Assembly: GCF_003751785.1 (NCBI RefSeq)
Contig: NZ_RKIE01000001.1
Span: forward strand, 1,341,564 to 1,405,563
Length of the DNA stretch: 64,000 nt
Reading direction: 5' to 3'
From: Frigoribacterium sp. PhB160
GTDB taxonomy: Bacteria; Actinomycetota; Actinomycetes; Actinomycetales; Microbacteriaceae
Position numbers and translations under genes: made by a program. Positions 14,753 through 54,085 of this stretch are shown in pieces (within the stretch, counting starts at the first letter, position 1; the number at the start of each line of letters is the position of its first letter). The notes beneath the pieces are model-generated. The model saw only the letters and a program-made list of their open reading frames with translations. It ran no database searches and was not told where the DNA came from.

Positions 14753-14825
14753 TCCTCGATAGCTCAATTGGCAGAGCAGCCGGCTGTTAACCGGCAGGTT
14801 GTTGGTTCGAGTCCAACTCGGGGAG
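14753..14825 (+). tRNA. tRNA-Asn(GTT)
   Basis: A 73-nt cloverleaf. Acceptor stem TCCTCGA pairs with TCGGGGA; the anticodon arm is GCCGG / CTGTTAA / CCGGC with anticodon GTT at 14786-14788; the T arm is GTTGG TTCGAGT CCAAC. No CCA is encoded. The 3' half (from 14790) is the left phage attachment core, and a second copy of that half lies at 53230-53265. The tRNA is intact in the lysogen because the phage brings an identical 3' half. Confidence 0.96.
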
Positions 14826-15122
14826 CGAAGGCCCAGCGGCTCCACCCGCTGGGCCTTTTTGCGTCTCCGGGTCGAAGGGCGCGATGACCGACGGGATGAA
14901 GTGCGACATGGGGACGCGCAGCAGGTAGGAGAGCACGGCGAGGTCGTCGGTGCTGAACGCCAGGCGCGCGTTGAGGCGCTCGTACCAGTAGCGCTGCGAG
15001 CGGCCGACTCGCTGGGGGAGTGAGTTGCTCGTCAGGCCCTGACGGGCGAGCTCGGCTCGGACCTCAGCGGCAATCATCTCGCGGCCGCTCTCTGCGCGGA
15101 CCGGCATGGGGATCACGTTCAT
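14787..15122 (-). CDS. phage repressor, prophage (truncated, 111-aa) form
   Basis: Candidate immunity repressor. Residues about 15-75 form a Cro/CI-like helix-turn-helix (AAEVRAELARQGLTSNSL ... STDDLAVLSYLLRVPMSHF), clearly paralogous to the divergent Cro-like protein. The last 23 codons (from KGPAGG to NQQPAG) are the antisense of the att core. The stop TAA (14787-14789) is contributed by the tRNA-Asn anticodon loop, outside the core, so it exists only after integration. In the circular phage the frame would continue through the core into 53229-53113, adding 38 residues and ending VRAA. The assignment as repressor rests on position, fold and this att arrangement. Confidence 0.85.
   Translation of the reverse strand: MNVIPMPVRAESGREMIAAEVRAELARQGLTSNSLPQRVGRSQRYWYERLNARLAFSTDDLAVLSYLLRVPMSHFIPSVIAPFDPETQKGPAGGAAGPSLPELDSNQQPAG
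14790..14859. repeat. attL core (70-bp direct repeat)
   Basis: Identical to 53230-53299 over 70 bp. It comprises the anticodon-stem 3' strand, variable loop, T arm and acceptor 3' strand of tRNA-Asn, plus 34 bp downstream containing the intrinsic terminator. Base 14789 (A versus T at 53229) and base 14860 (T versus C at 53300) mark the limits of identity. On the minus strand the same 70 bp encode 23 codons of the phage repressor. Confidence 0.95.
14828..14860 (+). terminator. tRNA-Asn intrinsic terminator (inside att core)
   Basis: Stem 14828-14839 pairs perfectly with 14846-14857, with a six-base loop, and the run of T ends at 14860. It starts three bases after the tRNA. A second copy lies in attR at 53268-53299. 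The element is also protein-coding on the opposite strand for the phage repressor. Confidence 0.85.
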
Positions 15123-15255
15123 GCGCTGACCGTATCACCTATGCCGAATGAAATGCCCGCTCATCCGCATAGATTCACGCGTTTGGGGGGTAAATCATCC
15201 GACAAGCGGATGATCCATGCTTGCAGTTATCCGCTGAGCGTCTAACACTGTCCCC
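15123..15255. promoter_or_regulatory. divergent immunity control region with operator repeats
   Basis: This 133-bp gap separates the divergent repressor and Cro-like genes. A perfect dyad lies at 15194-15214 (arms ATCATCCG / CGGATGAT, 5-bp spacer). Related half sites are TCATCCGC at 15161-15168, TTATCCGC at 15227-15234 and CGGATAA at 15260-15266; the last two form a 7-bp inverted pair around the Cro start. A likely Cro promoter is TTGCAG (15221-15226) and TAACAC (15243-15248), 16-bp spacer, placing the transcript start at or near ATG 15256, so the mRNA may be leaderless. The repressor promoter is not clear. Confidence 0.75.
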
Positions 15256-15498
15256 ATGACGGATAACGCAGCACGGCGAGTAGGCCGAAACGTGAAGGCA
15301 GAGCTCGCCCGCAACGGGCTGACCCAGGGGGAGCTGGCCGATCGCCTGCGTCTCACGCAGCCCGCGGTGTCGCGGCGTCTCAGCGGCGATGTGCCGTTCA
15401 ACGTCAACGAGCTCGCGGTGGTTTCGCGAGTCGTCGGCGTCCCCCTCTCCCGGCTCGTCGCGGGGTCCGAGCGTCCGCTCGTCCCCGTCCCCGCCTAG
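15256..15498 (+). CDS. Cro-like helix-turn-helix protein
   Basis: An 80-aa DNA-binding protein made of little more than one HTH (residues about 8-65: VGRNVKAELARNGLTQGELADRL, TQPAVSRRLSGD). It shares the pattern AELAR.GLT ... LAV.S....VP.S with the opposing repressor, so the pair arose by duplication. It is the first rightward gene of the early operon, the position of Cro in temperate phages. There is no ribosome binding site before ATG 15256, in agreement with leaderless translation. Confidence 0.8.
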   Translation: MTDNAARRVGRNVKAELARNGLTQGELADRLRLTQPAVSRRLSGDVPFNVNELAVVSRVVGVPLSRLVAGSERPLVPVPA

Positions 15499-52140: not shown

Positions 52141-52992
52141 TCACGCAGCGAGCGGTTGGCTCCGGGAGGGAGGTCTTTCGTCGTCGACGAGTCGGAGGTG
52201 GCCGCGGCGGGGGAGTGACGTTGCGGCAGCCGCGGCACGAACGGCGTCGAGGCCGACGTGCAGGTACCGCTCGGTCGTCGCGAGCGAGGAGTGGCCGAGG
52301 AAGTCCTGGACTGCCCGGAGGTCGCGGGTGCCGTTGTAGGCGCTCGTGGCGGCCGCGTGGCGGAGGCTGTGCGGGTTCGCGCCGAGCCGTCGCGTAATGA
52401 TCTTGTTCACGCTCGCCGGGTGCATGTGACCGCCGTACCGGCCCGGGAAATAGTAGCCACCTTGGCGCTCGTCCTCGAGCTCGAGGAGCACCTGCATCAG
52501 GTCGTCGTTGATCGGGACGCGGCGCTGCTTCTCGCCCTTGCCCGTGATGCGGAGCACGTCGTACTCGCGGTGCTTCGTGTGGAGCGTGGCGATCTCGCTG
52601 AGGCGAAGGCCAGCCAGCCGACCGAGGAGGATCATCGCCGACTCCTCGAGGGTGGAGCCTACGAGTGCGAGCTGCACCTCGCCGTCGGCTGCCAGGCGCG
52701 GCACCTTCCGGGGAACTCGGATGGGAGCCAAGCCGAGGGAGGGGTCTTCCGCTATTCGGCCGGTGCGATGGGCCCACCCGTAGAACGTGCGGAAGGAGGA
52801 CCTCATCGACTTGCGGGTCTCGGCGGAGTGGCTGGTGCGCCGCTCGGCGAGGAACCGCTCGAGGTCGGGCAGGGTGACGGACATCAGGTCCGGGTGGAGG
52901 GCGTGCAGGTGTTCGATGTGGCCGAGTCGCTGCTTGACGGTGCCGAGGCTACGGCCGGCGGCGAGTAGTGAGTTGCGGTACTCCTTCATCAT
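52141..52992 (-). CDS. int: tyrosine integrase with ssrA-like C-terminus
   Basis: A 283-aa tyrosine recombinase that should integrate the phage at tRNA-Asn. After a SAM-like core-binding domain (residues about 1-90) come the catalytic residues: Arg in AGLRLSEIATL, Lys in ITGKGEKQRRVPI, His-x-x-Arg in PHSLRHAAATS, His in FLGHSSLATT and the nucleophile Tyr in TERYLHVGL. It lacks the extra N-terminal arm-binding domain of lambda-type enzymes. The last residues, SQPLAA, resemble the ssrA degradation tag. The start is ATG 52992 with GAAGGA upstream; an alternative is 52989. In the circular phage it would follow the repressor gene on the same strand. Confidence 0.93.
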   Translation of the reverse strand: MMKEYRNSLLAAGRSLGTVKQRLGHIEHLHALHPDLMSVTLPDLERFLAERRTSHSAETRKSMRSSFRTFYGWAHRTGRIAEDPSLGLAPIRVPRKVPRLAADGEVQLALVGSTLEESAMILLGRLAGLRLSEIATLHTKHREYDVLRITGKGEKQRRVPINDDLMQVLLELEDERQGGYYFPGRYGGHMHPASVNKIITRRLGANPHSLRHAAATSAYNGTRDLRAVQDFLGHSSLATTERYLHVGLDAVRAAAAATSLPRRGHLRLVDDERPPSRSQPLAA

Positions 52993-53112: not shown

Positions 53113-53229
53113 CTAGGCAGCGCGGACCTTCGAGGTCAGCTCGGTGACCACCGCGTCGATCGGCCGAATGGGCTGCATCTCGGCGAGGACGCGGCGCTGT
53201 GCGAGACGCGAGTCCAGGGCAAGCGTGAT
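53113..53229 (-). other. detached 3' end of viral-form repressor gene
   Basis: These 117 bp, read on the minus strand, encode 38 residues (ITLALDSRLAQRRVLAEMQP, ending ELTSKVRAA) and a TAG. They are in the same frame as the repressor across the att core. In the lysogen they are cut off from their start codon; in the circular phage they restore a 149-aa repressor. Between this segment and integrase (52993-53112) lies 120 bp, containing TAGGAT on the minus strand (53045-53050), which could be a -10 element for int or part of arm sites. Confidence 0.85.
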
Positions 53230-53299
53230 ACCGGCAGGTTGTTGGTTCGAGTCCAACTCGGGGAGCGAAGGCCCAGCGGCTCCACCCGCTGGGCCTTTT
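53230..53299. repeat. attR core (70-bp direct repeat; tRNA-Asn 3' fragment)
   Basis: Perfect copy of 14790-14859. It contains the 3' 36 nt of tRNA-Asn (53230-53265), which is not a functional tRNA, and the terminator hairpin. Host DNA resumes at 53300. Confidence 0.95.
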
Positions 53300-53330
53300 C
53301 TCATTCCCCGTCGAGCGTGGCGTCGTGTCG

Positions 53331-53355
53331 CGTGACGTGACGTGACGTGACGTGA
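53331..53355. repeat. CGTGA pentamer tandem repeat
   Basis: Five exact copies of CGTGA in 25 bp, followed by one variant (CGTGG), located 32 bp to the right of attR in host DNA. The surrounding 219-bp gap (53300-53518) between attR and the peptide deformylase gene is GC-rich and holds no gene. Confidence 0.9.
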
Positions 53356-53518
53356 CGTGGCGTCGGATCGGATCGGTTCGGCTCGGGCCCTGGGCCCTGG
53401 GCCACGGGCGGCCTCGTGGCCCGGGCGTGCGGGCGTGCGGCGAGGCGACCGCCCAGGTGAGGCGGGCGACCGTCGTGACCCGCAGCGCGCCTCCCCGGGT
53501 CGTGGCGGGCGGCAGCCC

Positions 53519-54085
53519 TCAGGCGTCGAGGTCGTCGACGCCCGGCAGCCAGGTCTTGCCCGGGACTCCCCAGCTCGACCGCTTGACCTGCTTCGCCGCC
53601 GCCTTGTGGAAGGGGTGCTCGAGACGGTCGGCATAGAGCACGCCGTCGAGGTGGTCGTACTCGTGCTGGAAGATGCGGGCCAGCCAGCCGTGCGCCTCGA
53701 CCTCGAACTGCTCGCCCTCGAGGTCGGTCGCGCGCAGCAGGACCCGGTCGGCGCGGCGCAGCGGGAAGCGCTCGCCCGGGATCGACAGGCAGCCCTCCGA
53801 CTCGCCATCGTCGTCGAGGGGCTCGATGCCCAGCGGCGTCTGCCACAGCGTCGGGTTCACGGCGACGCCGCGCGAGCCCTGGCCGTCGTCGTCGACCCAC
53901 GACCACACGAACAGCCGCAGGCCGACGCCGACCTGCGGGGCGGCGAGGCCGACCCCGGGAGCCGCGTCCATCGTCTCGAACATGTCGCGGACGAGCGTGC
54001 GCAGCCCCTCGTCGACGAGGGACACCTGGGAGGCGGGGGAGTGGAGCACGGGATCGCCCGTGATCGAGATGGGTCGTACGGCCAT
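53519..54085 (-). CDS. def: peptide deformylase
   Basis: Removes the N-formyl group from nascent proteins; 188 aa. Metal-binding motifs are complete: motif I GVGLAAPQVG, motif II EGCLSIPGE with the Cys ligand, motif III QHEYDHLDGV with both His ligands. The C-terminal tail (KQVKRSSWGVPGKTWLPGVD) is typical for actinobacteria. ATG 54085 is used. It is the first host gene right of the prophage. Confidence 0.96.
   Translation of the reverse strand: MAVRPISITGDPVLHSPASQVSLVDEGLRTLVRDMFETMDAAPGVGLAAPQVGVGLRLFVWSWVDDDGQGSRGVAVNPTLWQTPLGIEPLDDDGESEGCLSIPGERFPLRRADRVLLRATDLEGEQFEVEAHGWLARIFQHEYDHLDGVLYADRLEHPFHKAAAKQVKRSSWGVPGKTWLPGVDDLDA

What the first reader, a model, noticed from the sequence alone, without database searches (positions are those of the whole stretch)
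14787..15122. Phage attachment core lies inside the repressor gene: integration-dependent immunity switch
The minus-strand repressor frame enters the 70-bp att core. In the lysogen it stops one codon past the core (111 aa). Joining 53229 to the core, as in the circular phage, keeps the frame open for 38 more codons, to TAG at 53113-53115 (149 aa). This matches the integration-dependent immunity architecture of mycobacteriophages BPs, Brujita and Charlie, where attP sits in the repressor gene and only the integrated, shortened form is stable and active. I know of no described example in a Microbacteriaceae prophage, but I cannot search for one.
Basis: partly seen in the sequence, partly recalled or inferred. 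Interest (0 to 1): 0.96.

Follow-up and report, generated by a model that had tools for sequence, protein, structure and literature searches.

The report
Prophage repressor switched by integration
This bacterial virus keeps its joining site inside the gene for its own off-switch, so that inserting into the host chromosome probably trims a destruction tag off the switch protein and turns it on; the trick is known from viruses of related bacteria and is seen here in a family where I found no report of it.

Summary
A 70-bp exact repeat (14790-14859 = 53230-53299) is the 3' half of a host tRNA-Asn gene plus its terminator. The minus-strand repressor enters it, stops at 111 aa in the lysogen, and reads to 149 aa at the in-silico attP. 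The open frame alone is weak evidence: 60-71% of random frames here stay open that long. The case rests on relatives. Of 20 viral contigs with an integrase match and at least 1 kb upstream of it, 10 carry an intact attP-like site inside a repressor-like frame just upstream of int. Of 11 same-family prophages with paired tRNA cores, 8 stop at the core in the lysogen and read through at attP; 3 do not. The integrase ends PLAA (host tmRNA tag ends ALAA); 33 of 39 distinct related integrases end AA, against 19 of 463 background ORFs. The trimming stop is the antisense of tRNA-Asn bases U35 U36 A37. This is integration-dependent immunity as described for mycobacteriophage BPs and reported or predicted in Gordonia and Bifidobacterium phages. 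My searches found no Microbacteriaceae case. It is a new member of a known kind; stability and immunity of the two forms are untested.

The parts
14753..14826 (+). host tRNA-Asn (anticodon GTT), attB/attL target
   Evidence: ARAGORN; Rfam tRNA
14790..14859 (.). attL copy of the 70-bp core (tRNA nt 38-74 plus terminator hairpin)
14787..14789 (-). host-supplied TAA stop of the lysogen repressor, antisense of tRNA nt 35-37 (U35 U36 A37)
14787..15122 (-). repressor, lysogen form, 111 aa; helix-turn-helix about residues 13-70, disordered tail from about 80
   Evidence: phrog_4583 2.8e-6; Pfam HTH_31 only 0.03, below cut-off; AlphaFold and Foldseek
15123..15255 (.). repressor/Cro control region with perfect palindrome ATCATCCG-N5-CGGATGAT at 15194-15214 (possible operator)
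   Evidence: operator role inferred
15256..15498 (+). Cro-like helix-turn-helix protein, 80 aa, first gene of the rightward (lytic) side
   Evidence: Pfam HTH_3 6.9e-7, phrog_4583 4e-17
52141..52992 (-). short tyrosine integrase, 283 aa, C-terminus ...SQPLAA
53113..53229 (-). [quoted passage not shown]
   Evidence: motif shared with some related tails
53230..53299 (.). attR copy of the 70-bp core

Best explanation
An integration-dependent immunity cassette of the BPs type in a Microbacteriaceae prophage integrated at tRNA-Asn. In the free phage the repressor gene spans attP and makes a 149-aa protein whose last 38 residues carry a degradation signal (inferred), so repression is weak. A short integrase, itself carrying an LAA-type end (inferred to make it unstable), recombines attP with the tRNA-Asn. 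Integration swaps the 38-codon tail for host DNA, where the complement of anticodon-loop bases U35 U36 A37 supplies TAA, giving a stable 111-aa repressor (stability inferred) that shuts off the divergent lytic promoter (inferred). Shown from sequence: anatomy, frames, stop, relatives with an intact attP-like site.
For: Frames and repeat; tRNA target intact at attL, with tRNA plus core contiguous in 15 of 15 other genomes of the genus. 10 of 20 viral contigs with at least 1 kb upstream of an integrase match have a repressor-like frame running through a tRNA T-arm-like segment into a 13-36 aa tail before int; 6 of the 10 misses are weak integrase matches of 27-33% identity. The same motif falls in the last 300 nt of 29 of 695 background ORFs. 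8 of 11 paired prophages conform, at tRNA-Asn (5), tRNA-Arg (2), tRNA-Val (1). Int ends AA in 33 of 39 distinct vs 19 of 463 background; host tag ANNKRTDFALAA. 14 of 20 tails end A/S vs 97 of 463. Between the L133 and L137 tails the last nine codons differ at 4 nt, all synonymous. Eight annotated repressors of related phages all show the T-arm-like segment in their frame.
Against: Chance openness is high. 3 of 11 pairs do not conform: G008 and G253 have no long frame at attL, and G033 has a longer lysogen frame and only 4 tail residues. No core pair was found in 4 further sets. The tail's match to ssrA is only ...RAA; several related tails end otherwise (...RARQ...PAVG...AI). HTH support is uneven: of the 10 viral repressors, 9 have some HTH-type Pfam match at E <= 0.1 but only 3 pass a cut-off and L139 has none; of the 7 other conforming prophage repressors, 6 have a match, 4 pass and G057 has none. 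The window repressor has no close relative in a proven case (listed phage hits 31-38%; in Obliviate the hit is gp34, not its annotated repressor gp38). No functional data.
Confidence: 0.88

Rival explanations
1. The overlap is incidental: the phage merely tolerates attP in the 3' end of its repressor gene, and both forms are equally stable and active.
For: Random frames stay open here 60-71% of the time; AlphaFold makes the C-terminal third, including the att-coded part, disordered and outside the HTH, so its loss need not matter.
Against: Ten natural attP-spanning repressor-like genes, strong AA bias of Int ends, shared tail motif 9 of 20 vs 0 of 463, though chosen after seeing the tails, and synonymous-only change in the last nine codons of L133/L137.
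Confidence: 0.07
2. The tail is not a degron but a working domain that changes activity (for example promoter activation or mixed oligomers) in the free phage.
For: The BPs paper raises such effects of its long form (PMC4557955, passages). 9 of 20 tails share A[VT][VI][TI]x[LIF] upstream of the extreme end, more than an ssrA end needs.
Against: 14 of 20 tails end in A or S like a protease tag, and most Ints of such phages end AA.
Confidence: 0.15
3. The 80-aa plus-strand HTH protein is the true repressor and the 111-aa protein is a Cro or excision factor.
For: The 80-aa protein matches repressor family phrog_4583 better (4e-17 vs 2.8e-6) and Pfam HTH_3 above cut-off, the 111-aa protein none above cut-off.
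Against: The 80-aa gene heads the rightward side with exonuclease, replication and structural genes, while the 111-aa gene runs with int, as in BPs.
Confidence: 0.05

Closest known systems
Integration-dependent immunity of mycobacteriophage BPs and clusters G, N, P (PMC4557955, PMC9262239; passages read)
   Same: rep and int co-directional, divergent cro-like gene, attP in rep, tRNA attB, tail lost on integration, tag-like ends on Rep and Int, host DNA next to the core makes the stop
   Different: Here tRNA-Asn rather than tRNA-Arg, 70-bp core including the tRNA terminator (35 bp in BPs), a whole host TAA codon from the anticodon loop (in BPs one host base alters a cysteine codon), 120 nt between rep and int (overlapping in Angel), 38-aa tail (33 in BPs)
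Gordonia phages with predicted systems (PMC4929511 search listing; PMC5559632 passages), e.g. GMA5
   Same: Short integrases related at 27-38% in the rows listed; repressors cross a tRNA T-arm-like segment
   Different: Other tRNAs and hosts; repressor bodies differ
Bifidobacterium prophages Bb423phi2 and 689b-1 (PMC6109161 passages)
   Same: Prophage-based in-silico inference of a tagged viral form at a tRNA site
   Different: tRNA-Met, 18-residue tail
Microbacterium phage Min1 (EF579802)
   Same: int-rep-cro order and AA-rich ends, host in Microbacteriaceae
   Different: A tRNA-Arg-like stretch lies in the 3' end of int, not in rep

Membership tests
Integration-dependent immunity (BPs type) | rep and int adjacent and co-directional in the viral genome, cro-like gene divergent | tested here: met
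Integration-dependent immunity (BPs type) | attP lies inside the repressor reading frame | tested here: met
   in-silico join; natural intact examples in relatives
Integration-dependent immunity (BPs type) | attB overlaps a host tRNA whose 3' end is restored | tested here: met
   intact tRNA-Asn at attL; core is host sequence in 15 of 15 other genus genomes; mapping
Integration-dependent immunity (BPs type) | integration shortens the repressor, host DNA supplying the stop | tested here: met
Integration-dependent immunity (BPs type) | short integrase without arm-binding domain | tested here: met
   283 aa; Pfam finds only SAM-like 15-77 and catalytic 116-246
Integration-dependent immunity (BPs type) | ssrA-like end on Int | tested here: met
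   PLAA, host tag ALAA; 33 of 39 distinct relatives end AA; sequence only
Integration-dependent immunity (BPs type) | ssrA-like end on the viral repressor | tested here: inconclusive
   ...KVRAA resembles but does not equal LAA; 14 of 20 tails end A/S
Integration-dependent immunity (BPs type) | long form degraded, short form stable and the only one giving immunity | not testable with these tools
   needs experiment

The most novel reading that the evidence does not exclude
Microbacteriaceae phages hold a large undescribed radiation of this switch in which (a) invariant bases of the host tRNA anticodon loop act as the repressor's stop codon, so any tRNA-Asn(GUU) guarantees correct trimming, and (b) the phage-borne tails share a new degron-like motif, A[VT][VI][TI]x[LIF], read by a protease or adaptor differently from a plain ssrA end.
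Probability: 0.3. Interest if true: 0.65.

Novelty: new member of a known kind. Interest (0 to 1): 0.5.

Why it matters
It extends integration-dependent immunity to Microbacteriaceae and shows, at three kinds of tRNA, how the host gene itself ends the repressor. It gives many natural tail sequences with which to define the degradation signal, and it suggests that short peptides antisense to tRNAs (LPELDSNQQPAG and the like) at prophage edges, easily taken for junk, can be real protein ends.

Tried and rejected
Openness of the 38-codon frame as proof: rejected, since chance is 0.60-0.71. Repressor-body homology as proof: rejected; the hits are generic HTH proteins, and in Obliviate the hit (gp34) is not the annotated repressor gp38. 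Sigma-70-like promoters in the control region: none found. A second copy of the palindrome in the window: none. Exact tRNA-core pattern in genome contigs: 0 hits, the own genome being left out there; in viral contigs: 2, both contigs already found. Tail motif statistics: the motif was chosen after seeing the tails and some tails are related (L123/L124/L126; L133/L137), so the printed p-values are not tests; the strict motif is in 0 of 8 annotated repressors of related phages, though Brusacoram (APVIPL) and Mutzi (QVIPL) look similar to the eye. G008 and G253 look like remnants and G033 has rep-like sequence on both sides of its element; I left them as misses. PDB fold search: XRE and lambda-cI-like N-terminal domains, best E 2.4e-3, none at or below 0.001. 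The 15 of 15 contiguous tRNA-core matches do not by themselves prove empty sites, because a lysogen's attL would match the same stretch; only the few bases beyond the core (3-18 nt in 14 of 15) and the lack of an integrase match in the 6 other genus genomes listed speak for emptiness. Phage records fetched but outside the 8: Obliviate (its gp38 only read), Arthrobacter Ryan (no annotated repressor beside int) and Min1. Not counted among the 39 distinct integrases: L117 (own), L132 (ends AA), L150-L157 (weak matches, none ends AA), L115 and L116 (not examined).

Full report
Observation. The window holds a 38-kb prophage between two exact 70-bp repeats, 14790-14859 and 53230-53299. The left copy is nt 38-74 of a tRNA-Asn gene (14753-14826; mapping) followed by its terminator hairpin. 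In 15 of 15 other genomes of the same genus the tRNA and the whole core occur as one stretch, so the core is host sequence; in 14 of 15 the match runs 3-18 nt on into the right flank. The 6 other genus genomes sampled have no match to the integrase. Of 10 prophage proteins scanned, 7 gave functions: RecE-like exonuclease, ParB-like, replication initiation, terminase, portal, major head and tape measure.

The repressor frame. Minus ORF 14787-15122 encodes 111 aa. Its last 23-24 residues are coded by the core, and its TAA is the first codon past it. At the joined attP the frame runs 38 further codons to TAG at 53113-53115, ending IDAVVTELTSKVRAA. The stop TAA is the antisense of tRNA nt 35-37, U35 U36 A37, so the host anticodon loop ends the protein. 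In the window, 60% of minus-strand and 71% of plus-strand positions stay open for at least 38 codons, so the open frame by itself proves nothing.

Neighbours. The 283-aa integrase (52141-52992, minus) has SAM-like and catalytic domains only and ends SQPLAA. The host's tmRNA tag is ANNKRTDFALAA. An 80-aa HTH protein lies divergently at 15256-15498, and the region between holds a perfect 8-5-8 palindrome found once in the window. The repressor itself matches phrog_4583 at 2.8e-6 and Pfam HTH_31 only at 0.03, below cut-off. AlphaFold gives a confident four-helix domain for residues about 13-70 of the 111-aa form and a disordered remainder; Foldseek ranks XRE and lambda cI domains first, best E 2.4e-3.

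Relatives with a natural attP. A search with eight aligned integrases (A1) gave 41 viral-contig loci, all scanned (31, 10). Twenty had at least 1 kb upstream of the integrase match. In 10 of these (L119, L123, L124, L126, L129, L131, L133, L137, L139, L141) a repressor-like frame runs through an antisense tRNA T-arm-like segment and on for 13-36 codons before int. In the other 10 it does not, or not clearly: L127, L148, L149, L150, and six weak integrase matches of 27-33% identity (L151-L154, L156, L157). As a control, the same motif falls in the last 300 nt of 29 of 695 background ORFs. Pfam finds some HTH-type match at E <= 0.1 in 9 of the 10 repressors, above cut-off in 3, none in L139. L129 and L133 are the contigs first seen as L010 and L007; L123, L124 and L126 share one integrase C-terminus. 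Four further contigs show the lysogen form ending LPELDSNQQPAG with TAA (L004, L005, L006, L009).

Relatives as paired prophages. Of 299 genomes of the window's family, 45 had an integrase match at E <= 1e-20. I fetched longer DNA for 14 integrase places, ten by score and four for a tRNA-like motif upstream. With the window that makes 15 sets; 11 had a tRNA core pair and 4 did not. In 8 of 11 (window, G057, G268, G051, G185 at tRNA-Asn; G056, G127 at tRNA-Arg; G238 at tRNA-Val) a repressor-like frame stops within two bases of the core edge in the lysogen and reads into a 24-60 aa tail at attP. Of the 7 besides the window, 6 have an HTH-type Pfam match at E <= 0.1, 4 above cut-off; G057 has none. 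In all five tRNA-Asn cases the stop is the same UUA complement; in tRNA-Val it is nt 33-35 and in tRNA-Arg nt 39-41 (for G051 ARAGORN's tRNA is one base shorter, so the count reads 34-36). G008, G253 and G033 do not conform.

Signs of selection on the ends. Of 43 integrases, 39 distinct, 33 end in AA, against 19 of 463 background ORFs of at least 200 aa picked greedily from the fetched regions and the window; the eight weak matches L150-L157, not in that count, do not end AA. Of 20 tails, 14 end in A or S (background 97 of 463), and 9 hold A[VT][VI][TI]x[LIF] in the last 20 residues (background 0 of 463), a motif chosen after the fact. The L133 and L137 tails differ by a frame-keeping codon gap, 7 synonymous and 6 other codon changes, but in the last nine codons only by 4 synonymous changes. 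Two of the 20 tails (L105, L110) come from attR sides only.

Comparison with the known. The published system (PMC4557955 and PMC9262239, passages read) has attP in the repressor gene, tags on repressor and integrase, a tRNA attB and a host-made stop. Eight annotated repressors or DNA-binding proteins beside such integrases (Angel, Typha, Mutzi, Fulbright, Coeur, Tarzan, Brusacoram, GMA5) all show the T-arm-like segment in their frame; I did not check in print that each of the eight is of this type. Systems of this kind are reported or predicted for Gordonia (PMC5559632 passages), Bifidobacterium (PMC6109161 passages) and Streptomyces (PMC12243558, search listing only). In Arthrobacter phage Galaxy the layout is similar but attP is outside the repressor (PMC5513430 passages). 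Searches for Microbacteriaceae, Microbacterium or Clavibacter together with such terms gave no paper whose listing or passages, as far as I read them, describe one there; most papers were seen as listings only. A Curtobacterium prophage survey has no hit for integration-dependent, attP, tRNA or ssrA in its main text, and a Microbacterium prophage paper has none for attP or ssrA. The library lacks most subscription papers, so this is not proof of absence.

Verdict. Anatomy and relatives make this a BPs-type system with confidence about 0.88. What remains inferred is that the tail causes degradation, that Int is unstable, and that only the short form gives immunity.

Noticed in passing
L158 (Microbacterium phage Min1, EF579802) 42-117 and 1066-1413: ARAGORN finds a tRNA-Arg-like stretch inside the 3' end of Min1's integrase gene while its c1 repressor ends KAAVSDLTAYRAAKAAG: possibly a variant in which integration trims Int rather than the repressor.
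   Followed up: partly
G033 (L074-L076): Repressor-like sequence with the tRNA-Arg core lies on both sides of the element, as if two elements sit in tandem; frames do not follow the rule.
   Followed up: partly
G008 (L060), upstream of int: An attR-side tail (...SGAVVTRVDEFLRRRALSA) that looks like the shared motif but no repressor at the far core, 8.8 kb away: probably a decayed prophage.
   Followed up: partly
L123, L124, L126: One integrase C-terminus follows two different repressor bodies (L123 against L124/L126), with tails that all hold VLHFRPRAS, suggesting swaps of the repressor head across the att core.
   Followed up: no
window 53300-54085: In the lysogen int is cut off from the repressor promoter; the ORF at 53519-54085 (minus) points towards it, so Int for excision may depend on another promoter or host read-through. 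Reading from the map only.
   Followed up: no
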